Assembly (NCBI GenBank): GCA_904066235.2
Contig: CAJFCV020000002.1
Coordinates: forward strand, 11,966,001 to 12,030,000
Length of the DNA stretch: 64,000 nucleotides
DNA from: Bursaphelenchus xylophilus
Lineage: Eukaryota > Nematoda > Chromadorea > Rhabditida > Aphelenchoididae
Reading direction: 5' to 3'
Shown here one piece after another: positions 7,722 through 31,595 of the stretch; within the stretch, counting starts at the first letter, position 1, and every line of letters starts with the position of its first letter. The translations under genes and the position numbers were made by a program. The notes below the pieces were generated by a model, which did no database searches, was not told where the DNA came from, and saw only the letters and a list, made by a program, of their open reading frames with translations.

Positions 7722-8843
7722 ATGACGGCTAAATTTTTTATAATTTTTGGTGTAGTGGCAACTTTTTATGGTAAGTGTGGCTGTGGGTTCGCAGGATTTG
7801 GTTTAAAGAACGAACAGTTGATATAACAACCGTTGGCCTGTTGTTTTTGGTTAAAAAAGGCGTCTTTTACAAAAAATTAAGGAGTAATTAAGATATAATA
7901 CTTGCATATTTTATAATACGGAGATGCGCTGAAAAGATTTTTTTTAAACCCTTGCGACTTTTTGCAAAGACTGCGTCCTCTAACTAACGATGAGTATAAA
8001 AAGATGACAATTCTGCTTCCGTAACAACCAATATCGGATTTCATTTTCAGTTGTAATATCCGCTCCAATTGACACAGAGGACGACCGAGAACCATCTACT
8101 GGGTCAGAAGTTGCCAAGCGGGAGGCCGGCGGGACTACCGCTGCCCCAGAACCTGTAGCCAAGAGGTCGCCACAAAATCCACTTGATGACACGATTAAAG
8201 TTGATGACGAAACAGCAGGGAGGGCTAAACGTCAAGCTGAATCGTTGCAAGTCACAACTGAAACGGTTTTTAAGCGAGACACCGAGGGGTCCTCTAAGGT
8301 TGTTGAGGAACGAGGAGTTGATGAGGAGGTTGAAGAAAAGGATGTGGATAAAAGGTCAGTCGAGGACTCAAGCCCTGAAACTGTTGTGAAGCGCGGAGGA
8401 GAAGGCAGCCGGGCTGACACTGGAGAGGACAAAGGTGTCAGAAGAAAGCGAGAAGACAACGCATCCAATGAAGAAGAGGATGAAGAAGGAGTTGAAGCTG
8501 ACGAAGGTGACGAAGATGAAGGAGGAGTGTTTGGAATGGGATTTGGAAGAAAGAAGAGAGATAATGAAGGTAAGCGGTTGTTAGAGAACCTACAGTAAAG
8601 CGTTCAATATAGGGACTTAGCTGATTTTTTATTTCAGCCCAAAATCCCAACATTCTGATTAAGCGAGAAGCTCAGCAAAAACCGGATGAAACACAGACGG
8701 AGGATAAAAACCCCAGAGAAAGTCAGCCATCTGGAGAGGCTCAAGAGACCAACCAAGCAGCAACTTACAACTCAGGGCTTTCCGATTCAAACGGTGAAGC
8801 CGTTAGTCCGATCCAAGCTGTTACCAGCCACGGAGTTTTGTAA
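7722..8843 (+). CDS. Acidic secreted precursor with nine KR sites, neuropeptide-like (257 aa)
   Basis: Three exons: 7722-7770, 8051-8569 and 8638-8843. Joins are phase 1. A signal peptide lies at residues 1-21, ending ISA. The rest is polar and rich in Glu and Asp, broken by dibasic sites ending at residues 40, 55, 77, 92, 118, 131, 150 (RRKR), 186 (RKKR) and 199. The stretch GVFGMGFGRKKR (175-186) has the Gly-basic pattern used for C-terminal amidation, so a peptide ending ...GMGF-NH2 is predicted. The spacer peptides are not copies of each other, unlike FLP or many NLP precursors. I therefore call it neuropeptide-like only as inference; a secreted propeptide or an antimicrobial precursor is the alternative. 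Its short first exon and TATA box match the Gly-rich cluster next door. AATAAA motifs follow at about 8878-8885. Confidence 0.85.
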
Positions 8844-9344: not shown

Positions 9345-10966
9345 TTATTCTTCTTTTGGTGACTCCGTCGTGGGATGCCTCAACGACATGAAGTCAGATA
9401 ATGGCTCTCCATTTTGTCCAAAGTTGAATCCACTTACTGGATCGTAGCCGGGCTGCTTTTGTTGCTTTTGCCCGTTTCCGATTCCGAACGGGAGATTTTC
9501 AGGGTTCTGGAAGATCGGATTATTGTTGCCATTTCCATTGTGATCCCAAGGGTTATTGCCGTTGCCATTATTGTTGCCATTTCCCCAGGGGTTGTTGCCG
9601 TTGCCATTGCCATTTCCCCAGGGGTTGTTGCCGTTGCCATTTCCCCAGGGATTGTTGCCGTTGCCATTATTGTTGCCATTTCCCCAGGGATTGTTTCCGT
9701 TGCCACCATTTCCATTTCCCCAAGGATTATTTTCATTGCCGTTTCCTCCATTACCCCAGGGGTTGTTGCCATTTCCACTACCGCCATTATTTCCCCAGGG
9801 GTTGTTGCCATTTCCATTACCGCCATTATTGCCCCAGGGGTTGTTGCCATTTCCACTACCGCCGTTATTTCCCCACGGGTTGTTGCCATTCCCGTTGCCG
9901 CCGTTGTTTCCCCAAGGATCGTTGCCATTACCTCCATTATTCCCCCATGGGTTGTTTCCGTTACCGTTGCCGCCATTATTGCCCCAAGGGTTATTGCCGT
10001 TACCATTCGATGGGGAACCCCATCCTCCGTTGCCGCCGTTGTTTCCCCACGAATTTCCATTTGGATTATTGCCTCCGTTGTTTCCCCAAGGGTTGTTTCC
10101 ACCTCCGCTACCACCATTGCCATTCGGTGGGGGGCCCCATCCTCCGTTGCCGCCGTTGTTTCCCCATGGATTTCCATTTGGATTGTTGCCTCCGTTGTTT
10201 CCATAAGGATTGTTGCCATTCCCATTTGGACCCCATCCTCCGTTGCCTCCATTATTTCCCCACTGGTTACCGTTCCCGTTGCCACCACCGTTCAGGCTAT
10301 CAGCATTGTCTTGATCTCTTTTGTCTGGATTATTTGGGTCAGAGGGAGCGTCTCCTGAGGGGTTATTCGGATCTAAAAAGAAAGTTTTGTATTTCTTTTT
10401 GGTAATCGGTTGATTCTACGATGTCGTAGCTTACTGTATCCGTTTCCATTTGGATTATTAGGATAGCCGTTATTGAAGCCACCACCGTTGTTGTAGCCTC
10501 CATTTTGGCCCCACTGATTTGGATTTCCGTTGAATCCGTTGGGGTTTCCACCATATCCTCCATTGGGATTCTGGAATCCGCCATTTGGATTCTGATTGTA
10601 GCCTCCGTTATTTCCCCATTGATTGTTCGGATTCTGAGGTCCCCATGGGTTCTGTTGACCGTTTCCGTAGTTATTGTAGTCTCCGTTTCCTCCATTTTCT
10701 CCTTCTTTATTCGCTGGAGTCTTGTTCTTCTCTTCGTCGGCTTTTGTGATTTCCGGGTTGTCCGATAAAACTGGAATATCATTGAGAGTCAATGCGCTTC
10801 CAGCAGGGAGGGAAAGCCCTGTAAAACAGCGTTAGTATGACACATTGATACCACCGACGGAAAAGTGCAGAAAATAGTGACATTTATAAGAAAATGCTGA
10901 CTATTGTCGAGCTCTATCATTACCTTTATTTAGAAGAAATAAAATTGAAATAAATGAGATTATCAT
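9345..10966 (-). CDS. Secreted Asn/Gly-rich NPWGN-repeat protein (484 aa)
   Basis: Three exons: 10966-10924, 10818-10435 and 10372-9345. The 43-nt first exon encodes MIISFISILFLLNK and ends in phase 1, like its neighbours. After a short polar stretch (ITKADEEKNKTPANKE) exon 2 carries NPNGG repeats, and exon 3 about 25 imperfect units of GNNPWGNNGGNGN. A single DKR site is near the start of exon 3. The non-repetitive C-terminus ends RHPTTESPKEE. The protein has no enzyme motif. Regular Trp-Gly-Asn units suggest a structural, adhesive or cuticle-associated secreted protein; that is inference. The DNA coding for the repeats also leaves long open frames on the opposite strand, which are shadows. 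This is the first of ten same-strand members. Confidence 0.88.
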
Positions 10967-11485
10967 TGCAATTTCGGCTAGATTCTATACAGTGAAAAAA
11001 TAGTAAAATCTGCGTAGGGAAACTGGAAAACGGGCCCAAAAAACCGTTTTATGTAAGAGGAATGAACGGCCACGGCCGATCATTATTTGTACAACTGCTT
11101 ATGGCGCCCGAAATATAAATTTACAAACGTTTTCGGAGGTTTCTTTACGACTTGAGGGGTTCAAATTTTATGTTTTAATCACAACAAAGTGAGTCATCGT
11201 CTTTAAAGTGCATAAAAGATTAACACAGTTTTGATCAGAGTTGAGGGATTCAAGAATTATTTCAAGGTAACATAGCATTGGGTGAAATGAAGACAAAGTT
11301 TGAGCAGCTGGCTCCGGAGGAAGTCTCGGACAATATTATATAATTTTGCAGCGATGCGTCATGTCACGATAAAATTTATATTTACTTTGCCATAAATAAA
11401 CGTAATCAATTGCGTGTACAACAAAATTACCGGAAAATTGCGTTGATTTTTTTTAGAAATTACTGAGAAATTTTAGATTTAATAT
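10967..11485. promoter_or_regulatory. Spacer/promoter upstream of the NPWGN gene
   Basis: 519 bp. It has a TGAGTCA at 11190-11196, 224 nt before the ATG, and only a degenerate TATA (CATAAAA near 11047-11053). This is the weakest core promoter of the cluster. No exon is seen. Confidence 0.45.
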
Positions 11486-12217
11486 TCACCATCTTCCCCC
11501 AAATTCATATCCACCGTTGCTGCCTGATCTTTCATTTCCGTCATCAAAGGGTCCCCCGTGTTGGTGCCTTCCTCCAAAGCCCCCATTGCCCTCACGCCCT
11601 CCATGTCTACCATTTCCGTGGTCATCAAAATCCTGATCTCTTCTTTCGTCATGGCCAAACCCATCGTTGCCGCCGTTTAATCTACCGTCGTTGCCGTGGT
11701 TGTAGTCAAAGCCATTTTTGCCGTCGTTGAAGCCATCGTTATTGCCGCGGTTATGGTCGAATCCATCACCGTTTTCGTTGAACCCTCCGTCCTCTCCGTG
11801 GCGATGTCCTAAATTTATGAATTAGTAATCGTGCATTTGACGAGCTTTTCATTCAAGCCGTTACCTTATTTCAACGACTTCTCCTATTTACGATCAGAAC
11901 TCACTTTTGCCTTCACCGTTGCGCCCATGGCTGTCTCCAAATGGCCCACCAAATCCTCTGTTAGCGTCATTGCCATAACCATCAAAGCTGTTCTCATCTT
12001 CTTTGAATCCACCGCCATTCTCCAGGTTCGGATCGAAATTAAAGCCAGGTGCCTCTCCTAACTTCTCTTGGACTTGGCCGTTGGAAGGCTTCTTGGATAC
12101 ATGTGAGTATCCTAATGATTGATGCATTACAAAAAGAAGAAAATAACATGTGATATCACTCTTAATCAATGGCTTGCCTTGATTCACGAGCAGGATTACA
12201 ATAAACGACTGGATCAT
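11486..12217 (-). CDS. Secreted Asn/Gly/Asp-rich protein (189 aa)
   Basis: Three exons: 12217-12178, 12111-11905 and 11808-11486. The 40-nt first exon encodes MIQSFIVILLVNQ and ends phase 1. Its intron starts with GC, not GT (AAG|GCAAGC), in an otherwise strong donor context. Exon 2 is acidic and Gly-rich (FDGYGNDANRGFGGPFG). Exon 3 carries loose repeats such as GFNDGKNGFDYNHGNDG and GNGRHGGREGNGGFGG, with an ERR site, and ends GGYEFGGRW. No known domain. The architecture is that of the flanking secreted Gly-rich genes; function unknown. Confidence 0.82.
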
Positions 12218-12698
12218 TGTATCAATATCTCAGATGGATATTGACTTTTGCCATATTATCCGTCCTTATATATGCTCCTAAACCTTACCGACCAAACCAT
12301 ATTTATTTGTCCAAATGTGACCATGAAAAACAAGTCTTGCAAACAATATTTCGATTTGTAGCACCACATATTGGTGAGCGTTGTCTTATGTGCATGGCAG
12401 GTGCAAGTGATCGTCAATATAGATTTCCATATGCTGGATTTATTTACAATTAGAAATACTTTGCTTTGACTGTGAGTCAGATCATGTTCAGTTGTCACGC
12501 AACGTTTTCAGACTACAGAAACGAGTTCTGTTGTAGTTAGGGTCAGGTTTCGGATATTGATGATTCCTTGAAATACTTTGTTAAACAGCAAAGAATAGAA
12601 CTGGCATTTTATTCCATTAACAATAAATTATCGCTGTTACAATTATTATATTTACAAAGCAAATGTTGCACATTCAGTTTCAGACGTCAATTTGTTTC
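12218..12698. other. Intergenic spacer in the Gly-rich run
   Basis: 481 bp with TATATAAGG at 12264-12272 and TGAGTCA at 12473-12479. No exon. Confidence 0.5.
12264..12272 (-). promoter_or_regulatory. TATA box (TATATAAGG)
   Basis: About 50 nt upstream of the ATG at 12217. A TGAGTCA heptamer lies further upstream at 12473-12479. Confidence 0.6.
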
Positions 12699-13516
12699 TT
12701 AGTACCCTCCAAACCAATGATATCCGTCCTGGTTATCGTTTCCAAAAGGACTCCGAGTAAATCCATTTTGGTTTCCACGATTTCCATGATTTTGTCGACC
12801 GTTCTCGCCGTTCCCATGACGGTGTTCATTGCCGTTTCGACCACCGAAACGACCATTATTTCCGTCACGGCCTTCATTTCCGTAGGACCTCGTGAATCCA
12901 CGGTTATTTTCGTCCGATCCAAAGAATCCCGGGGCTCGGGCTACACGTTCTCCACCTTCATTTTCTCCATTCTCACCTCTGTTGAATTTGTGGCTCTCTT
13001 CGTCATTTCCTTTGCCTTCAGAATGCTCATTCCCGAATTGACGGCCTTCTTTATTCTCTCCATTTTGACCAAAACCTCCGAGTTCTCCATTTTCGGTTCT
13101 ATGTTCTCCTCCGAGGCCCTGTTCTTCATGCTCGCTGGATCGACGTGCTCTAGTTGGCCATTGGTCCCTTCCGCCGAGGCCTCCGAATCCGCCCTGGCCG
13201 CCAAATCCTCCTTGCCCACCGAAGCCGCCATTCTGTCCGAATCCTCCATCTCCGCGCCCCTCTCCAAATCCAAAGCCTCCATTTTGGTCGCCAAATCCTC
13301 CACCGAATCCATTTTGTCCACCACCATTTTGCCCGCCGAATCCTCCGCCGAATCCGTTTTCCCCACCGCCATTTGGGCCACCAAACATTCCTTCGCCTTC
13401 GGAGTGGGCGGAAATTACTAAAAATCAGATGGTAATAAGTCACAAATTTACTGCATAAACATTTGTAATCACATACCGGTAGCCATAACCGCAACCACTG
13501 TAAGTAACTTGAACAT
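12699..13516 (-). CDS. Secreted GFGG-repeat protein with basic cleavage motifs (252 aa)
   Basis: Two exons: 13516-13477 (40 nt, encoding MFKLLTVVAVMAT, phase 1) and 13417-12699. After the signal peptide (cleavage likely near VISAHS) come GGGFGGQNGG units to about residue 90. Then comes QWPTRARRSSEHEE with an RARR motif, a Glu/Asn/Gly-rich acidic middle, and RVARAPGFFG. The C-terminus is Asn/Gly/Arg-rich and ends HWFGGY. The QWPTRARRSS segment resembles QWPSRRGRAS of the gene at 15685-16257, showing common ancestry. Processing by a furin-like protease is inferred from RARR and RVAR. Function unknown. Confidence 0.88.
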
Positions 13517-13928
13517 GGTTGAGCCTACAGGAAGCACTCAAAACAGTAAATGAAAGACTGATTTGCGTTGTGTACCCCACTGCTAAAGCTGCCTCCTTTT
13601 ATAACAAAAAAAGAGATCAATTGTCCTGCAAATCTGCATGAGTCATGTAATGTTTCAACTTATTTTGAAAACTTTTTTTGTATTTTTACTTCCAGACCAG
13701 AAACCACGCAATACAATGAACTGGATTTGAGCTTGTTTTTGTTTCTGATTCACGAGGGAAAGGATTATGATTGACGTAGATGTTACTCAGTGTTGCAACA
13801 CTTACTTGTTGTTTTTACCAAACTTTGAGTTGTGATTCACCTTTACAAAAGATTGCATTCTTTTATTAAAATTCAATTTGTAAAAAATAAAAAAATATTT
13901 TTTTTGAGTATATCGATTGGGCAGTGAC
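13517..13928. other. Intergenic spacer in the Gly-rich run
   Basis: 412 bp with the TATA at 13597 and TGAGTCA at 13639. No exon. Confidence 0.5.
13597..13603 (-). promoter_or_regulatory. TATA box (TATAAAA)
   Basis: 81-87 nt upstream of the ATG at 13516. TGAGTCA is at 13639-13645. Confidence 0.65.
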
Positions 13929-14645
13929 TTAGAAACTTTGTCCTCCACGTCCTCCCTGTCCTCCGCCGTTCTGTCCTCCGCGTCCGCCTTGACCACCTTG
14001 TCCGCCACCGCTCTGTCCTCCGCGTCCGCCTTGACCACCTTGTCCGCCACCGCTCTGTCCTCCGCGTCCGCCTTGGCCTCCACCGTTCTGTCCTCCGCGT
14101 CCTCCTTGGCCTCCGCCATTCTGACCGCCACGGCCTCCTTGACCACCTTGGCCGCCGCCGTTCTGTCCTCCGCGTCCGCCTTGACCTCCGCCGCTCTGTC
14201 CTCCACGGCCTCCTTGACCACCTTGGCCTCCGCCGCTCTGTCCTCCACGGCCTCCTTGACCACCTTGGCCTCCACCGCTCTGTCCTCCGCGTCCGCCTTG
14301 ACCACCTTGGCCGCCACCGCTCTGTCCTCCGCGTCCGCCTTGGCCTCCGCCGCTCTGCCCTCCGCGTCCGCCTTGGCCGCCACCGTTCTGACCGCCACGG
14401 CCTCCTTGTCCACCGCCTCCCCCGCCTTGTCCTCCTTGACCACCTTGCTGGCCTCCACCGAATCCTCCCTGTCGAGCCACTCGAACACTTCCGAGTTCTT
14501 CTTCATCGGACTCTTTTCCTTGCGGGTTTATGTTATCGGCGATTTCATTCGAACCTCCATCTTCTTCGCGATGGTTCGGAGCAGAATGGGCCACGCAGGC
14601 AACGCCATACAAGACCAAAGCGACGATTAGCAGCTTGGATGTCAT
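13929..14645 (-). CDS. Secreted GGQGGRGGQNGGG-repeat protein, single exon (238 aa)
   Basis: One uninterrupted frame, unlike the other cluster members. The signal peptide MTSKLLIVALVLYGVACVAHS is followed by an acidic propeptide-like stretch (NHREEDGGSNEI...ESDEEELGS). Next is RVAR, then about 170 residues made only of Gly, Gln, Arg, Asn and Ser in units like GGQGGRGGQSGGG. The RVAR at the acidic/repeat border looks like a propeptide cleavage site; it also occurs in the 252-aa neighbour. After cleavage the mature protein would be basic, which fits binding to an acidic polymer or an antimicrobial action. Both are inference. The intron was probably lost in this copy. Confidence 0.9.
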   Translation of the reverse strand: MTSKLLIVALVLYGVACVAHSAPNHREEDGGSNEIADNINPQGKESDEEELGSVRVARQGGFGGGQQGGQGGQGGGGGGQGGRGGQNGGGQGGRGGQSGGGQGGRGGQSGGGQGGQGGRGGQSGGGQGGQGGRGGQSGGGQGGQGGRGGQSGGGQGGRGGQNGGGQGGQGGRGGQNGGGQGGRGGQNGGGQGGRGGQSGGGQGGQGGRGGQSGGGQGGQGGRGGQNGGGQGGRGGQSF

Positions 14646-14703
14646 TGAGCAGACAGAAATTACTGAATAAATGGATGTGATGGAGATCCAAGGAGGTAAC
14701 GGT

Positions 14704-14710
14704 TTTTATA
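14704..14710 (-). promoter_or_regulatory. TATA box (TATAAAA)
   Basis: 59-65 nt upstream of the ATG at 14645. Confidence 0.65.
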
Positions 14711-15007
14711 GGGTTTAATCGGAGTGTGTTTAGCTGCCCTTTTTGAAGGTGCGGATGATTGACAAACAATCCTGCATTTGGGCAATCAGCAAACTCATAA
14801 TTTTAAAGATTACACCTGCTGAGCACTTGTGGGTGGTGGTTTGAAGGATATGAGGCGATGTGACGGAAAATTAGTCACTCGGGTCGGCAAGGTCGGTTAT
14901 ATGTCTGATTTGTGACATTAAGCGGGCCAAAAGTCTCGACAAATTTTTGCACGGTACGGCCTACCACTGTGCGTGGTCGGCGTGAACCGTGAATTTAGCT
15001 TACAAGG

Positions 15008-15435
15008 GAAGTACCCCACGTGCGACGCTCAGATTTGTTTTGAATTTTGCACACATGTCGGACATGAACCAGACATCAATTCCCGAAAGTTTTAGCTCGC
15101 GTTTTCCGGCGCCGCCCGGATATTGAACGATCTTTGCCGCCGGGAAAGCGTGCTAACCGCGGAGAGCGGTCAGAGAGCAAACCATTTTTTGGCCATAACT
15201 CCGCTAGTTTCGTGCGGAAAAAAATTATTTTTTGTGGAAAGATTACCTTCTATGGCAGAAAAAGGCATGAAACTTTTCGTGCCGAAATTCGGCAAAAGGT
15301 GTCAAATTTTCGCCGACCTTCGATGTAAAAATCTCGGTTATTTCTGCAATGCACGAGCTAGCATTTCGCATATTTTAGAAATAAATATTCTAAATTTGTG
15401 CCAAGTTTCATCAAGCGTCACACTTGGGGTACTTC
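15008..15435. mobile_element. Inverted-repeat element, 428 bp
   Basis: The ends GAAGTACCCCACGTGCGACGCT (15008-15029) and its inverted, slightly diverged copy at 15414-15435 bound a non-coding interior. This looks like a MITE. The short motif AAGTACCCCACA also occurs at about 35268. No clear target duplication is seen. Confidence 0.55.
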
Positions 15436-15684
15436 TCCTGTTAGTCGTCGTGCAACAACTTTTTTAATTGTGAGCAACGATGCATCATGAAAACATGTCA
15501 CGTCTTTTTGGCCGCCAGTTTTCTAAACAAGTTGCAAAATCATAGATCGTTCGTTTATTTATATATGACCATAATATGTACTTTTTGTAAGGAAAAAATC
15601 ATTATTAATTTAGATTTGCACAATGCTGATGGCCATTCTCGGAATTCTCTCCATTGTTTTGATGTCTCTGCGACTTTTCTGCTT

Positions 15685-16257
15685 TCAAATCACCATTTTT
15701 GTGTTCAGTGAATCCACAGATGCACGACCGCGTCTGCTCGGCCATTGGTTGTTTCCTCCTTGTCCTTCAAATCCATTATTCCCGTTCTGTTGTCCACCAA
15801 AACCTTTATCTCCGACTCCACCATTTCTGGAACGTGCTGGCGTTCCAGCCTTGTTATGGTCACTTAATCCGCCGTTGTGTTCTCCACCATGGCCTCGATT
15901 TCCTGATCCTTTCGAAGCTCCATTGCCGAATCCATCTGCCCCAAAAGATGCTTTTCTCCCATTCTGTTCTGCAAAACCTCCGAAACCACCATCGTGTCCA
16001 CCCAGGCCTTCGCCGAAACCGGCCGTTCGACCACTGGGATCAAATTCGCCGAACGCATGTGTGACTCTTTTGTCGGAGGATCGTTGGCCATCACGGTCAT
16101 TGGTCTCTCCAAGTTTTGGAATGTGATCCTCAGAATCCCATTTATCTGTGTGATGACAGTAGACTAGAACAAAAAATAACTAAACTGCTATCAGTAACTC
16201 TCGCCAAACTCCCTTACCGGTAGATACGATTACTGCGGTTGCCAAAAAATATAACAT
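15685..16257 (-). CDS. Secreted Gly-rich protein with SRRGRAS motif (172 aa)
   Basis: Two exons: 16257-16218 (40 nt, MLYFLATAVIVST, phase 1) and 16163-15685. The mature part starts with VYCHHTDKWDSEDHIP and has a DKR site. It continues as a Gly/Asn/Phe-rich low-complexity chain with less regular repeats than its neighbours (GFGEGLGGHDGGFGGF; GFGGQQNGNNGFEGQGG). Near the end QWPSRRGRASVDSL parallels QWPTRARRSSEHEE of the 252-aa gene. The protein ends LNTKMVI. An alternative splice near the end cannot be excluded, as GTGATT follows the last Met codon. Function unknown. Confidence 0.82.
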
Positions 16258-16889
16258 CAATTTAGCGGATGAGATAGCTGACAGTGGAAAGGTCTTCAAT
16301 CTGAATGTCTGTTTGTAGCATGCCTTCAGCAGCCTTTTTATATCAAAATAAAGGATTAACCGTATTACGTATGTATGAGTAATACAGCACAATGTTACAA
16401 CGCAGTTTGGAAAGGTGTTGTGAAACAATACGGCGTGTTAGCAAACTACAGATTAAAAATGATCCAAACCTAATCCTTTTCGAAAAAAAATTTGCATAAC
16501 AGACGACGTCACGGTTACTCGCCAAACTCATACCGTAGGAGAAATTACTGTCTGCATATATTATATTTACGCTGTTGATCATTGAGTGTAATCGTCTGTG
16601 ACTGGTCCCGCCGAACATTGGGTTGTATTCTTGGCTTATCACCTCCAACCTTACTTATGAATTGAGCAATAAACAAGAGCAGTGTTATCATTGAGCAGAA
16701 AGATGAAAAAGCAACACCCGCCTGCCATTTGCTTTCTTGTTTGATTAGCCGATTAAATTCTTGGCTAAGACTTTTGAGCTCTATTTTGTAGTCTTTTCTA
16801 GTGTTACAATGCGTGTCATTTAATAATTTTATAACATCATAAACAAATGCAATGGGGTAAATGGGTTATGGCTTTGAAGACATTGTGGC
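16258..16889. other. Intergenic spacer
   Basis: 632 bp between two same-strand Gly-rich genes. It holds the TATA at 16336-16342. I see no exon. Confidence 0.5.
16336..16342 (-). promoter_or_regulatory. TATA box (TATAAAAA)
   Basis: 79-85 nt upstream of the ATG at 16257. Confidence 0.6.
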
Positions 16890-17946
16890 TTAGTTTTGTC
16901 CTCTTCCTCCTTGGCTTCCTTGTCCACCTTGGCCTCCTCCGCGACCTCCTTGTCCTCCTTGGCCTCCACCGCGACCTCCCTGACCTCCACCGCGACCTCC
17001 TTGTCCTCCTTGGCCGCCGTTCTGTCCTCGACCACCGTTCTGATTATTCTGACCGCGTCCTCCCGGACCACCACTTTGCCCGCCACGGCCTCCTTGTCCT
17101 CCTTGGCCACCTTGACCTCCGCGTCCACCTTGGCCTCCACTCTGTCCACCACGGCCGCCTGGTCCTCCGCCATTTTGTCCGCCTGGACCACCTTGGCTTC
17201 CGCCTGGGCCTCCTTGGCCGCCGCTAGAGCTCGAACCACTGTCTTGACCTCCTTGAGGGCTCCGACGGAAACGACCATAACCTCCTTGACCTCCAGAGCT
17301 TCCACCGTTTTGTCCACCATACCCTCCTTGGCTTCCTTGGTTTCCTTGGCCGCCAAATCCGCCTTGGCCTCCAAAGCCGCCGCCATTTTGACCGCCGAAC
17401 CCTCCCTGGCCTCCTTGATTTCCTTGGCCGCCAAACCCGCCTTGGCCTCCGAAGCCGCCGCCATTTTGACCGCCGAATCCTCCCTGGCCTCCTTGATTTC
17501 CTTGGCCTCCAAAGCCGCCACCGTTTTGACCGCCGAATCCTCCTTGGCCTCCTTGATTTCCTTGGCCTCCAAAGCCGCCACCACTTTGACCGCCGAAACC
17601 TCCCTGGCCTCCTTGGCCACCAAAGCCTCCTTGTCCTCCAAATCCACCTCCGCTCTGACCTCCAAAGCCGCCTGGAGGTCCTCCTTGTCCGCCAAATCCT
17701 CCTGGCCCTCCAGGACCTCCAAATGGTGGTGGTCCTGGTGGTGGGCCTGGTGGTCCTCCATTGTTTTCATTGGAAGATTCTTCGTCATCGTTATTGTCAG
17801 AACTGGTTGTCTGGGCCGAGACCAGTGAGACAACTGAAAGAATTTCGTATAATGCTTCGCAATTTCTAAGAAGTGCTAAAATGTATCCAATATTATGACG
17901 TACCTCCAAAGAGCATCAAGTTGATCAAAAGTATTTTGGAAAGCAT
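16890..17946 (-). CDS. Secreted GGFGGQ-repeat protein (328 aa)
   Basis: Two exons: 17946-17904 (43 nt, MLSKILLINLMLFG, phase 1) and 17833-16890. The signal peptide ends near VSLVSAQ. An acidic Ser/Asn/Glu stretch and a proline run (GGPPGPPPGPPPFGG) follow. Then come about nine units of GGFGGQNGGGFGGQGNQGGQ, then RFRRSPQGG, then GGQGGRGGQSGG-type units to the end. The order (signal, acidic spacer, FGGQ repeats, RxRR, QGGRGG repeats) shows that the repeat types of neighbouring genes are combined in one protein. No enzyme motif. Probable extracellular matrix, adhesive or defence protein (inference). Confidence 0.9.
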
Positions 17947-18366
17947 GGTTGGGAACACAATACAACTACAAGTGATGTGATGAATAGGAAACACTTGCAG
18001 TCCTTTTATAGGAAGCGTATATAGGAATCAAGGTGAGTTTAGCCACCTGTTGCCGCGTGAAAGTTAAACAACACTGTTTAACACTCTGGCTGGGCGTGTC
18101 TTTTTTATTTTTTCAACGGTTAGAGGTCTGACTGCCTTTGAGCTTAGCAATATCGAAGGCACGGATAGTCAGATTCGGTTCAATGAGTCATTGGCTATGA
18201 TTTGTGACATTAAATTCAAGATTATGATTTCAAAATTGGCGTGGTTTTAAACAAAAATTTATTTCTTGAGCAGGATATTTATAATGCATAATACATATTG
18301 AAAAATTTGACGCAAAATATCGAATCATAAATCTTTAAAGTTAATTCTCACACTTAAAGTGATAGG
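17947..18366. other. Intergenic spacer in the Gly-rich run
   Basis: 420 bp with the TATA at 18004 and TGAGTCA at 18184. No exon. Confidence 0.5.
18004..18010 (-). promoter_or_regulatory. TATA box (TATAAAAGG)
   Basis: 58-64 nt upstream of the ATG at 17946. TGAGTCA is at 18184-18190. Confidence 0.65.
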
Positions 18367-19797
18367 TTATTGCTGGCTTGATTGTGGGCCACCAAATCCA
18401 CCAGAACCTCCTTGGACACCGCTTTGTCCTGGTCCGAATCCTTCAGGTCCACCTTGTCCAAATCCTCCTGGGCCTCCGGATACTCCTTGTCCAAATCCTC
18501 CTGGGCCACCGGGACCACCTTGGCCAAATCTTTCTGGGCCACCGGGACCACCTTGGCTAAATCCTCCTGGGCCACCGGGACCACCTTGGCCAAATCCTCC
18601 TGGGCCTCCGGATACTCCTTGACCAAATCCTCCTTGGCCACCAGGACCACCTTGTCCAAATCCTCCAGGCCCGCCTTGGCCAATTCCTCCTGGGCCTCCG
18701 GATACTCCCTGACCAAATCCTCCCGGGCCGCCAGGACCTCCTTCGCCACCAAATTCACTACTCTCTTGCTGACCACCTTGGTTAGCGCTCTGGCCTTCCT
18801 GTCCCTCTCCATTTCCTCCTTGATTTTGTCCGTTACCGTTCTTGTTGCCGCCGTGTCCGCTTGGAGAACGACGTGAGCGCTGTTCGTTTCCTTGGTTGTT
18901 ATTTCCTCCTGGTCCACTCTGGACATTTTCGGTGCCGTCTTGTCCTTGTTGGCCTTGTTGCCCACCAAATCCGTCACCGCCGCTTTGGCTACTGTTCTGT
19001 CCACCAAAGCCTCCTTGACTTCCTTCAAAATTAGACTGACCTCCTTGTTCTCCAGGGCCGCTCTGGCTGTCACTGTTACCTGGTCCATTTTCTTGGTTGT
19101 CGCGTCGGTAGCGTTGAGGACCTTGACTGTTGTTTCCCTCTGGACCGCCTTGGCTGCTTCCTGGACCACCTTGGCTGCTTCCTGGACCACCCTGACTACT
19201 TCCTGATCCGCTTTGTCCTTGCTGACCCTGCTGCCCACCGAAATTGCCGGAATCTCCTTGGTTGCCATTCTGTCCGCCAAAACCTTGATTTGACTGGTCG
19301 TTGCCGCCTTGTTGTCCTTGGCCAAAGGCACCTTGACCTTCTTGCCCTCCAAGTCCTACACTATGTTCTCCTTGGCCTTCCGACTGTCGTCGGGAACGGC
19401 TTGGCGGGCTTTGACCGAAGTCTCCACTAGGTCCGCCGCTTTGGCTCCCTCCAAAAGCGCCTTGTCCGGGCTGACTGTTTCCTCCAAAGCCGCCAATTCC
19501 TCCTTGAGGTCCGTCGATGCTTCCGAAACCACCTTGGCCCAAACTTTCACCGCCAATTCCTCCTTGGCTTCCACCCTGGCCTCCAAATTCAGCTTGGCCG
19601 CCACCAAGCCCACCAAATCCGCCGCTGGACTGGCTATCGCCTCCAATTCCAGGCGGTCCACCTGACTGTGGTCGGGATAGCCCTACAAACAAATTTTAAT
19701 GGATCATAATAATATATACAGCTATCATAATCCTGCCTTCACCATAACTCTTACCTTGCTGCAAAATCAAAGCGATCAGAAAAGTCTGTCGAAGCAT
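18367..19797 (-). CDS. Secreted Gly/Gln/Ser/Pro-rich protein with three RxRR-type sites (452 aa)
   Basis: Two exons: 19797-19755 (43 nt, MLRQTFLIALILQQ, phase 1) and 19682-18367. It is the second longest of the cluster. The first half has GGFGG and QGGIGG units, the second half GGPGGFGQG units that resemble Gly-Pro collagen-like chains but without a strict Gly-X-Y register. Basic sites divide it: PPSRSRRQSEGQ (about residue 90), RYRRDNQ and QRSRRSPSG. If cut at these it would release several fragments of roughly 70-180 residues. The SRSRR segment is nearly the same in the next gene (PPSRSRRASQQ). No known domain. Confidence 0.9.
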
Positions 19798-20220
19798 GGT
19801 TCAATAAAATCCTACTATATCAAAGACCAAATTGTAATACGATTACCGAAGCCATCGGGTCGGCTTTTATATCAGTTTGGGTCGGATTAACAATGGCGTA
19901 CGAGGGATGAGTAACAAAACGTTGCAAGTAAAATTTCGAGGTATTGCCGTAATTGGAGGATCGAACGAATGAACCGAGGTCGAGCTTGTGCTTTTTAGTT
20001 GTTCGTATTTGTTACAATGAGTCAGAATTAGATCACAAAGAACTTTGATCATGAGCTTTTATGGAAGCCCCCGGCCTTTGTCTCCTTTTTTTTTGAAAGC
20101 GGAAATTTGGTCTCATTTTTACAAAAAATATTATACTTTATTTGACGTTTTTTGCATTTTTTCGCAATCAGCTTTTACATAATTCGCCGTTAAAAACATC
20201 GATGTTTATTAGGCCTTATA
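19798..20220. other. Intergenic spacer in the Gly-rich run
   Basis: 423 bp with the TATA at 19865 and TGAGTCA at 20018. No exon. Confidence 0.5.
19865..19871 (-). promoter_or_regulatory. TATA box (TATAAAAGCC)
   Basis: 68-74 nt upstream of the ATG at 19797. TGAGTCA is at 20018-20024. Confidence 0.65.
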
Positions 20221-20929
20221 TCACGGAAAATATAAAAAAGAAGGTATGGCAATACGCCGGAAGTGTGTTTCCCTGACTGTTGTTCTCTTATGAGTTTCCT
20301 TTCCGCGGCTTCCTTGGTTGTTTTGTCCTCCATTTGTAGGGCCGCCTTGCTGATTTTGTCGTCCTTGTTGACTATTCTGGCCACCTTGTTGACCATTCGG
20401 GCCTCCTTGTTGGCCGCGTTGACCTCCCTGAGCGCCTTGTTGTCCGCCTCTTCCTCCCTGTTGGTTGTTCTGACCGCCCTGTTGACGTCCTCCCTGCTGA
20501 GAAGCGCGTCGGGAACGGCTCGGGGGACCTCCTTGCTGCCCACCTTGGCCTCCTTGCTGCCCACCTTGTCCTCCTGGCTGCCCGCTTTGTCCGTTTGTCC
20601 CTCCCTGACCGCCACCATTAGATCCACCTTTTTGCTCATTTCCATTTCCTTGGCTTCCGCCGAAGCCTCCAGTTTGACCTCCTTGGCCGCCAAATCCTCC
20701 TTGACTAGGCGGACCTTGGTTGAATGAAACGGAGCGTTTGTCACGGTTATCAGACAACTCGCTAGTCTTATTCTGACCTCCGTTATTGTGGTTGTTTGGG
20801 GGCTTCCCATCGAACCAGAAAGCAGCTGAATGTAGCTGGTAGCAGTTTTTACATTTTACATTGGATGTCATAAGAATTTCACTTACCTCCTTGGAAAACT
20901 AAGACCGCAAGAAGAACCTTTGTCAACAT
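20221..20929 (-). CDS. Secreted Gln/Gly-rich protein (215 aa)
   Basis: Two exons: 20929-20887 (43 nt, MLTKVLLAVLVFQG, phase 1) and 20825-20221. The mature start is AAFWFDGKPPNNHNN, followed by a dibasic DKRSVSF site, GGFGGQGGQTGG units, SRSRRAS, and then GGQQGGQGGQQGG units. The last about 25 residues are basic and hydrophobic (KETHKRTTVRETHFRRIAIP) and end SFLYFP, unlike the rest. Two putative cleavage sites would free a central Gln-Gly block. The frame runs through both repeats without interruption. Function unknown. Confidence 0.88.
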
Positions 20930-20999
20930 TTTGATCACTATTGTTACAGTAATCCAAATCCTTTTTTGGATGTGATATCCCTTTCAATTTCTCTGGTCC

Positions 21000-21006
21000 T
21001 TTTATA
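21000..21006 (-). promoter_or_regulatory. TATA box (TATAAAAGG)
   Basis: 71-77 nt upstream of the ATG at 20929. Confidence 0.65.
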
Positions 21007-21467
21007 CATGAAGTTGTTGCACAACGTCTTATTTGCTCACATTGGAAATGTGTGATTAGCATTTCATTCCCGCCACTATTTCAAAATTTCGCTATTTTCA
21101 TTTATTTGCAGTATTCAAATATCCAGTGGTTGTCTATCTTTGTGATCAAGGTTGGGATACCAAACAAAGAGATTTGCGTTTGATTTGTCATCAAATGCCA
21201 GCGCCAATTCTTGCTTGTGAGCAGAACTATGACTTGTGACCTATGCTTTACTCGGTCATAGAAAGAGTCTCGCATATCTGGTGTATAGCCACTTATTGGG
21301 TACAAGTGGAGACCCGATCATCCGCTATTTCATACCTTTATTGTGATGCAATCTTTGTTTACATATCTGTTTGGAAAACGATGTTTGAACTTTGTTTGTT
21401 AGATGGCAAAGCCTGCATAAGTTTGAGTGAAAGTAGTGCTATTTAACGTAGCAACGCCATACTAACT

Positions 21468-21614
21468 AGATGATTTATATCTGACGGCAAATTATTTTTT
21501 CGCACCTACAAAAAATCGATTACTTTCCACATTTTGATCGAAACCGTACACGAAGTTGACGATAAGAAAGTGCAAAGATGGCCTCCCGAACTTGCCGCCA
21601 GATATAAATCATCT
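21468..21614. mobile_element. Short inverted-repeat element, 147 bp
   Basis: Terminal inverted repeats of 23 bp, AGATGATTTATATCTG(A/G)C followed by GGCAA, at 21468-21490 and 21592-21614, with one mismatch. The centre is unrelated sequence. It is either a MITE or a long hairpin near the 3' end of the 115-aa gene. Confidence 0.55.
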
Positions 21615-21689
21615 TGGCTCTATGTATACGTATATCAAAAGCATATAATTCGCTTAATTTTATGTCGAGAAAAAACTGAAGTACAGTAG

Positions 21690-22271
21690 TTAACCTCCTC
21701 CGCCACCGCCTCCTCCGCCGCCGCCAAAAGGTCCCCCTCCTCCGCCGCCGCCGCCACCACCACCGCCTCCTCCACCTCCATCACCACCATTATTGCAGCA
21801 GCTTTTCTTTTTCTGACAGCAATCACCTCCTTCAGATTCTCCATACTCGTAGTAATAATCGTAAAACCTCTTTTCTCTCACATTTTCTCCAGCATATTGA
21901 ATCGGACGCGTTCGCGGACGACCATGCACAATGGCTTTCTCAGGCAACGGATCGTAGAACTCAACTTGTGGCGCTGCTGGAAATGTTACAGTGAGGGACC
22001 TGATCCAGTGGCAAAAAAAAAGTTTTGAAGGGCGCTTTCGAAATCGGAGTTTTTTCACTTGGAGAGGGAAGCATTTTGCCACATTTTTGATACTTCCCGG
22101 ATGCAAAATGGTGCGTTTTTTGCCACTGGATCAGGTCCCCCACTGTAAGTCGTCAATTTCTGTCATCAGATGAAATCGACAAAAGTTTTCCGACACATTC
22201 CTTGCCTTACCTTTCACCAGAAGCAGAACACAAGCTACTACAAACACCAGCAAAAAACATCTCAATAACAT
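21690..22271 (-). CDS. Secreted Cys-containing poly-Gly protein (115 aa)
   Basis: Two exons: 22271-22211 (61 nt, encoding MLLRCFLLVFVVACVLLLVK, phase 1) and 21976-21690. The start at 22271 was chosen because the frame then opens with the signal peptide. The mature chain begins AAPQVEFYDPLPEK, has a Tyr-rich stretch (RFYDYYYEYGESEGG), then CCQKKKSCCNN. It ends in about 37 nearly pure Gly residues with a single PF. The paired cysteines (CC, CC) and the pure Gly tail set it apart from the Gln/Asn-type neighbours. The 234-nt intron is mostly a 157-bp MITE; without it the intron would be 75 nt. Function unknown. Confidence 0.82.
21989..22145. mobile_element. Family-A MITE, internally deleted copy (157 bp)
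   Basis: It has CAGTG...CACTG ends with flanking TA at 21987-21988 and 22146-22147. The right arm matches 1-62 closely, and the left arm is shortened by an internal deletion. It lies in the intron of the 115-aa gene, 12 nt from the 3' splice site. Confidence 0.85.
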
Positions 22272-22936
22272 TGTTAATAACTGAATTGTATATACAGATA
22301 TTTCCAGAAGGCTTTTATACACCTTATTGTTTATGTCAGCGATGTTTTGATCATGGGAAAAGTACGCGTCATTATGGATCGTACTTTTTGGATCATCCAT
22401 AAGAGATCGAAAAACTCTACATAGTGCAAATATATAATATGCTTTTTTTTTGATCCTTAACTATTTTCACATTCAAGTAAGATATGTCACCTTTTTCGTA
22501 AAATCCAAATTCTTCTAAATTTCGCAAAGTGTACCACATAAATCAATCAATTTTTGGGTAGCCCAGAAAATACGTCATCCGCGACCGATTTTCCAGATTC
22601 TCGATTCTTTCGATTGTACAATTTTCAGGTGCAGCTGTTGTCAGTAGTTTGCAGCGGTTTCATCTGAAACAGTGGAAGATTTTTGTGTCAGTAGGAGAAT
22701 GACAAGTGTAAGGTAATCTTTTCTCGATTTTTCTTTGTTTTTAGAAAGGTTGTCCGTATATACAGAGAAAAATGACTCTGCAATTGATAAATAAGGTAAT
22801 TTGGCTTTATTTTATGCTTGTTTGAATGTGAAATAGCAGGTAACAGCAATATTTCGTTACTAGGGAGCTAAAACAATCTTATAATATTGGCGTTGTTTCT
22901 ACGATTTTTTCTGCCAATTCTAATCTTTACTTCCTT
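22272..22936. other. Intergenic spacer
   Basis: 665 bp. Apart from the TATA at 22313-22319 I see no exon or repeat. Confidence 0.5.
22313..22319 (-). promoter_or_regulatory. TATA box (TATAAAAGCC)
   Basis: 42-48 nt upstream of the ATG at 22271. Confidence 0.6.
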
Positions 22937-23203
22937 TTAGCACGGACAGTGACATTCACAACCCTCGGGCCCGTCACCACGCCCGCCACCTCTTCCACCT
23001 CCATTGTGGCCACTTGCACCGTCTTCATCAATGTGCCAAGGGTTTCCTCTTGCATGATAAGGTTTATAACTGTCCTCAGCCGATGAACTCACTGATGGAC
23101 TTGGAACTGTTGAAAAGATACTAGCAGGTAAACCCGTCTACCTTGGTGAAAAAGAAATGATAACGCCAATACTGTCAAGAATAAGGTAAGATATTTTGAT
23201 CAT
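22937..23203 (-). CDS. Small secreted Gly/Cys protein (about 70 aa), splice model uncertain
   Basis: Exon 1 starts at 23203 with MIKISYLILDSIGVIISF and ends at the donor after 23142 (AAG|GTAGAC, phase 2). Exon 2 is clear in its 3' part: SSAEDSYKPYHARGNPWHID, then a GGGRGGGRGDG run, then CECHCPC and a stop. The frame fits a 43-nt-class intron whose acceptor is at 23099/23100 (CCAAG). The better-looking acceptor at 23107 (CAACAG) would need a different donor. It is the last member of the minus-strand Gly-rich run. Four cysteines in the last seven residues suggest a disulfide-linked or metal-binding tail (inference). TATAAA is at 23252-23257. Confidence 0.6.
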
Positions 23204-28200: not shown

Positions 28201-29888
28201 AGACGAAGTCTGTCTAGAACGAACTATTTTAAAGGTCTCAAAAATAAACTTTAGTCCAGAAAGAACCTCCAAGCAATGAAACCTTTCTATAACAAATTCT
28301 TTTTTGTCAACTGTGCTAACTTATAGAGTTCCACTGTATTAAGTTTTGGTCCTTTCTCGCAAGTAAAGTTCTTACTTTCTCATTTTTTTCGAAATTTTTG
28401 AATCTTTCTCGCTATTTTATAAACAACTATGACTGTTTATGACACGAAAGTAAGCAAGATCGACCCTCTACAACGGCTCTGTAAAAAATTTTTAAACGTT
28501 GACCTTAACTACACCTGCCACCCTTCAGCCACATCCGCCCGGTTCACGCCATAAATTGGAGTGATAAAACAAATTGCAGGAGAATCTTCGTCTTCTTCTT
28601 CCCCCCTTTCTCACAAGATTATTTATTTGCAACTTGGAATTGCGCGAGAATTTTTAAAACAAGAAATTCATCAGGGGTACACTGATCTTTTTATTCGACA
28701 AGAATTTCCACTTTTTGCGGTATTTTTTTTAATCTTTCTTTTGAAGTTTTTGGCTTTTTGACAGTTGACTTTGAAAGGTTGTTGAAAAGATTAGCAATTG
28801 CTGGTTTAGTCGATATCGAAGGGGGTTGTCTTTTTTTGAATTTTCCAAAGTTTCTAGCGACTTTTCCGGTGGTCACTCTGTTGAAAGACTATCTGCAAAA
28901 AAGATTTACTATTATATAATATTTTAGCCATGTTTTTTTGCTAAATTTGTCTGTTTTTGTACCGACCGCATAATAGTTTTATGTTACATCGCTTTCCGGT
29001 GTAAATTTCTCCAGTCAGATAATCATTTTTTTCCGCTTTAAATTGACCAAGACACGGCCAAGAAAACGCGTTTTCTTTGACCGCATTTCGCTCTCTAATT
29101 GCCGGCTAAGATCGATGATTTTCTCGACCACCACCATTGCAAGACGCGAGCTGGAATCTTCGGAAATTTTGAGTCATACTTATTTTCTTTCTCTTAAAAA
29201 TTGCAAAAACATCTTTCTGCATCTGTAGCATTGCTTGAACCGTCGTCCATTGCACTGTTGTTTACCCTCAACGAAACGAAAGGAGAACATTTTCATCACA
29301 TTCTTGATGAAAATCCAATTCCTTTCCTTTCTTCATGGTAGACGCGCCGTTTGGATGGTATTTCGAATAAAAGTATCCGTTTTTGTTTCCTTTGTTTTTG
29401 TCAAATTTGAAATGTTAGAGTGACCGCTTCGGGTTTCGTGGCCGTTTTCGGGAACGGCCAAAGTTTGGGATAAAAAAAAATATGGAAAGTGTATAGTGTA
29501 ATCTTATAGCCCCAGGGCATTTCATTTTCGGTTTTTGGTTGGCGACTTTTGGAACGAAGGGGGGGGGGAATGATTTTAGCCAAGATAGGGAAGGGTTTGG
29601 TCATCTTTGGCGTTTATTTTCCTTACTAACCGTTATTTCTTTATTCTATTGCCCAATTTAATAGATGAAATGAGTGTTTAAAGAGTCAAAAGCTTGTTGG
29701 TTATATACATGTTTGCCATAGAATCGTTCCATCAGCATAGTTTTCTGGACAAGAATTTTTCCCGGCGAGTCCGACCTTAAATTTCGTGCTTTATTGAAAC
29801 CTCTGCTTTTGTTTTTTGCAACGCGAATTTTTGATGCTTTGAACGATGAAGAGGAAGTGAAAACTCAAGTTCTTACTGTTCATTTCAG
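25217..29888. other. 4.7-kb region without a convincing gene
   Basis: AT-rich sequence with a GC-richer patch at about 26040-26330. It contains a 134-bp MITE at 27794-27927. Two short open segments, 27107-27289 (+) and 27421-27633 (-), have weak splice-like borders but no recognisable product. The right part must hold the promoter of the Thr/Glu-rich gene. Confidence 0.55.
27794..27927. mobile_element. Family-B MITE, 134 bp
   Basis: Starts TCAGTCTGTCGAGAAAATAA and ends with the inverted copy TTATTTTCCCGACAGACTGA. TA follows the right end; the left flank is CA. A second copy with the same termini lies at 44417-44565. There is no coding capacity. Confidence 0.8.
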
Positions 29889-31595
29889 ATGTCAAGGAGG
29901 TTAAATCGAATATTCCTCCTAATCCTTCTCCTTTATGGCCCTATACTCACAAATTCCTGGTGGTTCTTCGACAGCGAGGATTCGCTAAGTAAAAAAGTCG
30001 AGGAATTAAAGCAAGAAGAAGAGGAGACGACGACAAGTCCAATCTCAGAGACAGAGGACGATTCAGAAGATTTTTTGAAATCGAATCGAAGGCTGAAATT
30101 TGGGATAAAAGAGCATCGATTCAACTCATCGTTAGTTGTTGATGAGAAAGAAGAAGAGGTTCCCAAATTGGGAAAGGAGCACGAAATTGAAGAGACGCCG
30201 TTGGATCCAGTCCCGGATACAGTTGAGACAACGACAGAATTCATTCCAGAACTACCGACGCCATTGCCGGATAGCAGTGATGACGGTGAGTATATTTACG
30301 GACGTTGGCTTCCATCTTTGGTTGATCTTTAATCTTTGGAAGCAAAATAAGTTGAAAAAGTTTAAAGAGAATATTTTTGCCTTAAATTCGCAGAACTAAT
30401 TCAGCTTCTTGACCGAATCTCTGATAATATTCCAGAAACGCAGCCCGAAAAGTCCGCATCCGCTGTTGAGGAAGAGCCAACAACAGAATCGTTGATAATC
30501 CCTGCGGACATTTCGGACGCAGAGGCTGGACTCTCTGCCGATGAGGATTCGGAGACAACGTTGACCTCAATTACTCAAACCGGTGTCGAGGAGACTACAT
30601 TAGCGCCTACAGCTTCACTAGACGTTGAGAAATCACAAAGCGATGAAGAAGGGCCCCAAAAGACGACGGCGGTGGAAGTTGAGCCCACAACAACGACAGA
30701 GGTTGTTGAAGAAACGACGACAACTGAGACGACAACCACGACGACGGAAGCTACGACAACCACAGAAATTACCACTACCACGACCACAGAAATTACTACT
30801 ACCACGACTACACAAATTACTACTACGACGGCGGAAGCGACAACTATTATTGAGGAAGCGACAACTGAAGTTGCAGCGGCTGAAAGTGAAGCAACAACGC
30901 CGGAGGAAACAGGGGAAGATGAAGAAGCCAGAATCTTAGACGATGCAGGCCATGCAAACGAAGGGAATGCGGTCACTGAAGAGCAGCCAGTACAGCAAAC
31001 CACTGTCGCAACAATACCGCCGGCATCAATTTCTGTTTTGGGCGAGGAAATTGTTTCAACTACTGAGGCAATTTCTGAACCTCCCATATTTACTCCACCA
31101 ACCGCTGATTCGAATGATATTCTTAACAATATTGAGATTGAAACTCCCGACAGTAAGTATTTAATGTTTTTTTTGGAAGGTTTTAGCATATATTTATTAT
31201 AGCTGGGTGTCGATCTTTGACCCCATTCTGATAGATTTGTTTGTCTTTAAAAAATTTCGATGAGAAAAAATGAAGAACCGCGCCGAGTAGGGCTTTGGAT
31301 ACCTCCAGGCCTGGCTTTCAGCGGTTTCAAAAATTTAGAAAATGCCCACAGCGGGCAAACTTTGACAGAGGGCAAAAAAACCACTGTCGTGTTCTTTGTA
31401 AGGGCAAAGTGGACGTAAAAACCATTACATAACGCAAAATTTCAGAAAACAATCAAGTCGTCTACATCACGGATAGCGATGTTTTACCAACAAGCACTGT
31501 CCTAAGATCTCGCGAATCGGCTGATACGGAGACTCAGAAGAGCGTAAATGAGATTCGCCCTGAAAACCCAAGGCCAGAACCACGACCATACAATC
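29889..31595 (+). CDS. Secreted Thr/Glu-rich mucin-like protein, 3' end unresolved (at least 435 aa)
   Basis: Three sure exons: 29889-30285, 30394-31152 and 31446-31595, with phase 1 joins. The ATG directly follows a TTTCAG, as at a spliced-leader site. The signal peptide (residues 1-22, RIFLLILLLYGPILTNS) is followed by an acidic region with TTT clusters. At about residues 232-285 comes a dense Thr stretch (TTTTEITTTTTTEITTTTTT), a likely O-glycosylated mucin segment. Exon 3 ends phase 1 after RPEPRPYN. A possible fourth exon starts at 32041 (phase-compatible, open to 32257), but its coding character is weak. The SEA exon at 35353 is in the wrong phase to follow exon 3 directly. The gene may end near 32.4 kb, or be a 5' part of the SEA/LDLa gene through an unseen exon. 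Confidence 0.8.

What the first reader, a model, noticed from the sequence alone, without database searches (positions are those of the whole stretch)
9345..23203. Ten-gene tandem cluster of secreted Gly/Asn/Gln-rich repeat proteins
Ten consecutive minus-strand genes encode signal peptides followed by low-complexity chains. The repeat unit differs from gene to gene (NPWGNNGGN, GGFGGQ, GGQGGRGGQ, GGPGGFGQG, GGQQGG, pure Gly with CC). Eight share the same gene form: a first exon of 40, 43 or 61 nt holding only the signal peptide, ending in phase 1 with a G. This points to duplication of one ancestor and later turnover of the repeats, as in cuticle, silk-like, adhesive or antimicrobial families. 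It is the strongest candidate for an undescribed system in the window.
Basis: partly seen in the sequence, partly recalled or inferred. Interest (0 to 1): 0.85.

Follow-up and report, generated by a model that had tools for sequence, protein, structure and literature searches.

The report
Nematode cluster of cleaved glycine-rich proteins
Near one end of a pinewood nematode chromosome, nine neighbouring genes appear to encode secreted, glycine-rich chains, most carrying sites where a processing enzyme could cut them; they may form a protective coating, an antimicrobial mix or part of the worm's saliva, but no use has been shown.

Summary
Nine intact gene models lie on the minus strand (9345-22271). 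Eight have the reported 40/43/61-nt phase-1 first exon ending in G; g4 has no intron. The tenth (22933-23203) has no workable model. The genome is Bursaphelenchus xylophilus.

(2) TATA boxes 48-87 bp before the ATG in 8 of 9 models, 4 being exact matches to STATAWAARS, a published pharyngeal-gland promoter motif of this species. (3) GGQGG, GGFGGQ and NPWGNNGG codon patterns concentrate here (43 of 86, 15 of 21, 5 of 5 genome matches). (4) In g1 and g4, repeat differences fall mostly at third codon positions, a sign of protein-level constraint.

Best reading: a tandem family of furin-processed, disordered glycine-rich secretions of both charges, probably matrix or coat material. Antimicrobial precursors and gland saliva are live rivals. 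Common descent is plausible for some pairs, unproven for all. No expression data were available. New variant of a known kind.

The parts
9345..10966 (-). g1: 484 aa, signal peptide, NPWGNNGGN repeats, DKR site; exons 10966-10924, 10818-10435, 10372-9345
   Evidence: Model; all 5 NPWGNNGG codon-pattern matches in the genome are here; not recovered from the protein database even as itself
11486..12217 (-). g2: 189 aa, Gly/Asn/Asp-rich, KR and RR pairs, GC-AG first intron
12699..13516 (-). g3: 252 aa, GGFGGQ-type repeats, RARR and RVAR sites
13929..14645 (-). g4: 238 aa, single exon, acidic pro-part ending RVAR, then (GGQ/GGR)n, net +13
15685..16257 (-). g5: 172 aa, DKR and RRGR sites
16890..17946 (-). 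g6: 328 aa, GGFGGQ repeats, RFRR site, then (GGQ/GGR)n, net +8
18367..19797 (-). g7: 452 aa, three RXRR sites making four modules of 96, 95, 78 and 166 aa; GGPGGFGQG repeats
20221..20929 (-). g8: 215 aa, RDKR and RSRR sites, GGQQGG repeats
   Evidence: shared exact 14-mer with g7
21690..22271 (-). g9: 115 aa, REKR site, then Tyr-rich stretch, CC..CC and poly-Gly
   Evidence: no candidate in the protein database
22933..23203 (-). g10: unresolved or broken; ATG out of frame with the signal-peptide-like reading
   Evidence: three-frame translation
14702..14711 (-). STATAWAARS match 66 bp before g4 ATG
18002..18011 (-). STATAWAARS match 65 bp before g6 ATG
20998..21007 (-). STATAWAARS match 78 bp before g8 ATG
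22311..22320 (-). STATAWAARS match 49 bp before g9 ATG
7722..8843 (+). g0: neighbouring secreted acidic precursor, 257 aa, many KR sites, 49-nt phase-1 first exon; not Gly-rich, listed as neighbour
   Evidence: 100% identical to annotated protein P0001

Best explanation
A tandem family of secreted preproproteins of Bursaphelenchus xylophilus. Each chain enters the ER by its signal peptide (inferred from sequence), is cut in the secretory pathway by a furin/BLI-4-type convertase at RX[KR]R, RVAR, RRGR or DKR sites (inferred), and releases disordered Gly-rich modules. Some modules are net positive (in g4, g6, g8) and others net negative (in g1, g2, g3, g7), which would favour condensation of a mixed extracellular material such as a surface coat, pharyngeal or cuticular matrix, or secreted plug (inferred, least certain step). 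The genes look like separate transcription units rather than an operon: gaps are 412-1039 bp, 8 of 9 models have a TATA box and 8 of 9 a poly-A-type signal within 250 nt of the stop, though a few of these lie very close to it.
For: Nine open models with clean splice sites. RX[KR]R: 8 sites in 5 of 9 chains, shuffled mean 0.47, 0 of 5000 shuffles reach it. Mixed net charges after cutting. All 52 rows of the tandem-repeat output (overlapping rows) have periods that are multiples of 3. Repeat mismatches by codon position: 49 of 70 at position 3, p 7e-10; g4 16 of 17, g1 16 of 20. TATA boxes in 8 of 9 models at -48 to -87; gaps and poly-A-type signals. No known folded domain: 0 of 9 proteins match Pfam. 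Disordered low-complexity secreted families help build the pharyngeal cuticle of C. elegans, and many cuticle collagens appear to be furin-processed (PMC9629831 and PMC11304992, passages read).
Against: No expression, proteomic or localisation data. Tyrosine, whose motifs mark epicuticlin repeats, is rare (0-9 per chain). g1, g2, g4 and g5 have no RX[KR]R; the weaker RXXR and [KR]R classes are only modestly above shuffles (132 and 70 of 5000 reach the total). In g7 the differing repeat codons are not mainly synonymous (7 synonymous, 11 not); g6 and g8 gave few comparable codons, g3 none, and g2, g5 and g9 were not tested. Charge complementarity is only computed, with signal-peptide ends set by eye.
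Confidence: 0.45

Rival explanations
1. Antimicrobial precursors: furin releases Gly-rich peptides that act on fungi or bacteria, like nematode GRSPs or a Baramicin-type multi-peptide precursor.
For: Prepro layout with RX[KR]R-type cuts and, in g4 among others, an acidic N-terminal part; cationic modules in g4 (+13), g6 (+8), g8 (+9); Drosophila BaraA is cut at RXRR into several peptides, one of them Gly-rich (PMC8423362, passages); B. xylophilus is reported with 61 putative AMP genes (PMC10506718, passage).
Against: All modules of g1, g2 and g7 and two of three of g3 are net negative; 6 of 9 chains exceed the 200-aa GRSP limit; no activity data.
Confidence: 0.25
2. Pharyngeal-gland secretions of the parasite (saliva or plug material), switched on by the STATAWAARS promoter type.
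For: 4 of 10 promoters (300 bp, g1-g10) carry exact STATAWAARS; the published rate, 597 of 17,735 promoters, gives P 2e-4, and a rate among secreted genes that I derived (206 of about 2252) gives P 0.009 (figures from PMC6062891, results section read). In that paper 7 of 10 newly tested motif genes were gland-expressed.
Against: The motif was looked up after the TATA boxes had been seen. It is a TATA box with fixed flanks and is not over-represented genome-wide (4346 matches, reversed control 6544); 5 of 9 gene models lack an exact match within 1000 bp; 66% of motif genes in that paper have no signal peptide.
Confidence: 0.22
3. Ordinary low-complexity open frames or decayed repeats without a common function.
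For: g10 looks broken; g1 and g9 are not found in the protein database.
Against: Third-position bias in g1 and g4 repeats, intact splice sites, processing motifs and promoters.
Confidence: 0.06

Closest known systems
Nematode glycine-rich secreted peptides (GRSP, including nlp-24-34)
   Same: Secreted, Gly above 17%, multigene
   Different: 6 of 9 here are longer than 200 aa; several processing sites in some chains; C. elegans best-hit test could not be run
C. elegans pharyngeal-cuticle disordered families (IDPA, IDPB, IDPC, APPG)
   Same: Secreted, predicted disordered, low complexity, multigene
Ascaris epicuticlin Asu-EPIC-1
   Same: Short exon 1 (55 bp) and a repeat-coding exon 2; signal peptide; disordered
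   Different: Tyr-motif repeats of 49 or 51 aa with the GYR motif (PF02756); none of 9 proteins here matches Pfam
Globodera HYP effectors
   Same: Secreted, variable in-frame tandem repeats, some Gly-rich (RGGG)
   Different: HYPs share highly conserved flanks (over 90% identical) and vary between alleles; here flanks differ between genes and allelic variation is untested
Drosophila Baramicin A
   Same: One precursor cut at RXRR sites into several peptides, one Gly-rich
   Different: No sequence relation shown; here several tandem genes with long repeats

Membership tests
GRSP (criteria of PMC10506718) | Precursor of at most 200 aa | tested here: not met
   3 of 9 meet it (g2 189, g5 172, g9 115 aa), 6 of 9 do not
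GRSP (criteria of PMC10506718) | Mature Gly content above 17% | tested here: met
   25-54% in 9 of 9, counted over residues 19 onward, uncut
GRSP (criteria of PMC10506718) | Predicted signal peptide | tested here: inconclusive
   Hydrophobic N-terminus by hydropathy in 8 of 8 genes with a separate exon 1; g4 not scanned; no signal-peptide predictor available
GRSP (criteria of PMC10506718) | C. elegans GRSP among top five BLAST hits | not testable with these tools
   No C. elegans proteome on hand
Epicuticlin | GYR motif, Pfam PF02756, in Tyr-motif repeats | tested here: not met
   0 Pfam families in 9 of 9 proteins; no GYR string in any of 9
Cuticle collagen | Collagen Gly-X-Y domain / cuticle collagen N-terminal domain | tested here: not met
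   0 Pfam families in 9 of 9
HYP effector | Flanks over 90% identical between members | tested here: not met
   N-terminal and C-terminal parts differ between the nine (translations; alignment of six of nine, 26-40% identity to the first)
HYP effector | Allelic variation of the repeat domain | not testable with these tools
   One assembly only
B. xylophilus gland effector list (criteria of PMC6062891) | STATAWAARS within 1000 bp upstream | tested here: inconclusive
   Met by g4, g6, g8, g9; not by g1, g2, g3, g5, g7
B. xylophilus gland effector list (criteria of PMC6062891) | Gland-cell expression above 100 FPKM | not testable with these tools
   No expression data; gene IDs of the paper could not be mapped
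Pharyngeal-cuticle IDP families | Pharynx expression in successive waves around the moult | not testable with these tools
   No expression data

The most novel reading that the evidence does not exclude
A single locus encodes a multi-component, furin-released secretion in which oppositely charged Gly-rich chains from neighbouring genes condense outside the gland or epithelium into a cement, plug or coat: a nematode counterpart of tick cement or worm glue, with repeat units free to turn over because only composition, charge and cut sites are selected.
Probability: 0.18. Interest if true: 0.75.

Novelty: new variant of a known kind. Interest (0 to 1): 0.5.

Why it matters
If real, it is a compact, testable case of how low-complexity secreted proteins diversify: neighbouring genes keep secretion, cutting sites and promoter type while their repeats diverge. 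It also marks secreted proteins of a major forest pathogen of which two (g1 and g9) were not found in the protein collection searched; if they are missing from the public annotation, proteomic searches against it could not have seen them.

Tried and rejected
Not supported: operon (gaps 412-1039 bp, own TATA box in 8 of 9). Not supported: a genome-wide family of the same form. Outside the cluster the GGQGG pattern has 43 matches against 39 for its reversed control over the whole genome. I read 20 of those 43: 11 single matches (L024-L034) and 9 at four loci (L054-L057). Gly-rich frames do exist there (for example L028, L031, L032, L054-L057). RX[KR]R was seen in two frames only: RAKR in L056 and REKR in a 44-aa frame of L030, 20% Gly. 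The 6 outside GGFGGQ matches lie at 5 loci, all read: two Hsp70-like C-termini by recall (L076, L078), a long Gly-rich frame with RXXR but no RX[KR]R (L075), a 90-aa frame with one RHRR and 14% Gly (L077), and L063 without a frame of 40 aa holding the motif. Protein searches of the own genome with g8, the first 204 aa of g1, the first 330 aa of g7, and g3 found only themselves, plus one weak hit for g3 (E 0.045); they miss repeats, so they do not exclude paralogues. The six 1-mismatch 14-mer places are within chance (8 matches in all, reversed control 14) and show no Gly-rich frame. PDB with g7: none. NCBIfam with g3 and g4: none. g0 as a family member: set aside, not Gly-rich. The STATAWAARS site at plus 7994 lies in g0 intron 1, so is not its promoter. 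Structure prediction was not run because the chains look disordered. In print: searches; 12 open papers hold both 'Bursaphelenchus' and 'glycine-rich' (listing and abstract starts), two of them by title on nematode protein families (PMC10506718, PMC8764417); the passages I read of these do not describe this cluster.
Full report
Place and organism. The window is C2:11966001-12030000 of a 78,253,340-base genome in 8 contigs. C2 is 12,140,115 and C4 12,794,883 bases, which fit the N90 (12,140 kb) and N50 (12,794 kb) of the B. xylophilus Ka4C1 v5 assembly (PMC7561696, whole text read; that paper lists 11 scaffolds, 8 are held here). A published 20-nt Bx-vap primer (PMC10720641, passages) matches exactly once, and the neighbour g0 is 100% identical over 257 aa to a protein named B. 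xylophilus on a 12,140,115-base contig. The cluster lies about 150-165 kb from the end of its contig.

Gene models. Nine intact models were built by eye and checked by script: 484, 189, 252, 238, 172, 328, 452, 215 and 115 aa for g1-g9. A mechanical scan for that form on both strands found 10 hits in 64 kb: eight of these genes, 16691 on the same strand, and g0; none elsewhere, and none in 111,980 bases of other fetched loci, some overlapping. Its limits were set after seeing the genes. The tenth gene of the finding has no consistent model.

Are the genes real? All 52 tandem-repeat rows (overlapping) have periods that are multiples of 3. Comparing six of nine coding sequences with themselves at the best in-frame lag, 49 of 70 mismatches are at codon position 3. 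This rests mainly on g1 (16 of 20) and g4 (16 of 17). g7 has 11 of 22, with more nonsynonymous than synonymous codon pairs (11 and 7); g6 and g8 have few codons, g3 none; g2, g5 and g9 were not tested. The comparisons are not independent, so the p value is indicative.

Processing sites. RX[KR]R occurs 8 times, in g3, g6, g7 (three), g8 (two) and g9; shuffles of residues 19 onward average 0.47 and none of 5000 reaches 8. P[ST]R-type linkers occur in g3, g5, g7 and g8 (0 of 5000; this pattern was chosen after reading the sites). Looser classes are weaker (RXXR total reached by 132, [KR]R by 70 of 5000). Further sites: RVAR in g3 and g4, RRGR in g5, DKR in g1 and g5. g2 has only a KR and an RR pair. 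Cutting there gives modules of mixed net charge (signal-peptide ends set by eye).

Promoters. g2-g9 have TATA[AT]AA[AG] 48-87 bp before the ATG; g1 has none, and g10 only a plain TATAAA at -54. Exact STATAWAARS precedes g4, g6, g8 and g9; g2, g3, g5 and g7 differ at one place. In the window the motif occurs 5 times on the minus strand, four of them here, and twice on the plus strand. Against the published promoter rate P is 2e-4; against a rate for secreted genes that I derived from that paper's percentages P is 0.009. The motif came to mind (recalled, then looked up) after I had seen the TATA boxes. Because it is a TATA variant, it suggests but does not show gland expression.

Uniqueness in the genome. 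Codon patterns: GGQGG 86 matches, 43 in the cluster, control 39; GGFGGQ 21, 15 in the cluster, control 1; NPWGNNGG 5, all in g1, control 0. The patterns leave out one of the four Gly codons, and the tool calls counts of repeats lower bounds. Other Gly-rich frames exist in the genome, so it is the concentration that is unusual, not Gly-richness.

Ancestry. Evidence for descent from one gene is good for pairs (g3-g5 linker and promoter; g7-g8 linker and exact 14-mer) and weak for the whole set (mean promoter z 0.86 over 45 pairs; g5-g0 the best pair). g4 and g6 share GGQ/GGR repeats, which could also be convergence or conversion.

Relatives elsewhere. g9 gave no candidate; g1 gave 7989 candidates and none at E 0.001, not even itself. 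Both may be missing from that protein set, though a composition effect is not excluded. g0 found only itself. The other seven were not searched there. No nematode genome other than this one could be searched, so synteny is untested.

Function. What is shown is sequence anatomy. What is inferred is secretion, cutting and matrix formation. I weigh matrix or coat first (0.45), antimicrobial precursors (0.25) and gland secretion (0.22) next; gland secretion overlaps with the first, since a gland could secrete a matrix. Papers, what I saw: PMC10506718 passages and one section; PMC9629831, PMC11304992, PMC4177990, PMC11228951, PMC8423362, PMC3689755, PMC6465311, PMC8764417 and PMC10720641 passages; PMC9612446 abstract and one section; PMC6062891 abstract and results section; PMC7561696 whole. 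Tick cement proteins are known to me here from search listings only. That signal-peptide exons often end in phase 1 is recalled, from no call.

Noticed in passing
window 7722-8843 (+): g0: secreted acidic precursor with about ten KR/RR cut sites, 49-nt phase-1 first exon, divergently placed beside the cluster; annotated but unnamed in B. xylophilus (P0001), no other relative found.
   Followed up: partly
window 16691 (-): A further signal-peptide-like exon (49 nt, GTGAT donor) between g5 and g6 without a coding continuation that I could see; possible relic.
   Followed up: partly
window 22933-23203 (-): Short frame with Gly/Arg stretch and a Cys-rich end beside a signal-peptide-like stretch in another frame; looks broken.
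   Followed up: partly
window 48437-63215 (+): LDL-receptor A, laminin B, laminin EGF and many Ig domains: an UNC-52/perlecan-like gene (name from domains and recall).
   Followed up: partly
window 29850-31202 (+): Open frames of an acidic, Thr/Glu-rich low-complexity protein with a hydrophobic start, no Pfam match.
   Followed up: partly
window 35341-35871 (+): Open frame with a SEA domain (Pfam PF01390, E 1.1e-9).
   Followed up: no
L056 (C6:8011501-8014500) and L055 (C5:7428001-7431000): Gly-rich open frames elsewhere in the genome, one in L056 with RAKR, one in L055 Gly/Gln/Trp-rich; not modelled.
   Followed up: no
L075 (C5:12496501-12500000): 601-aa frame with GGFGGESKGFGG repeats near a contig end, no RX[KR]R; may be a germ-granule helicase N-terminus (guess from recall).
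   Followed up: no
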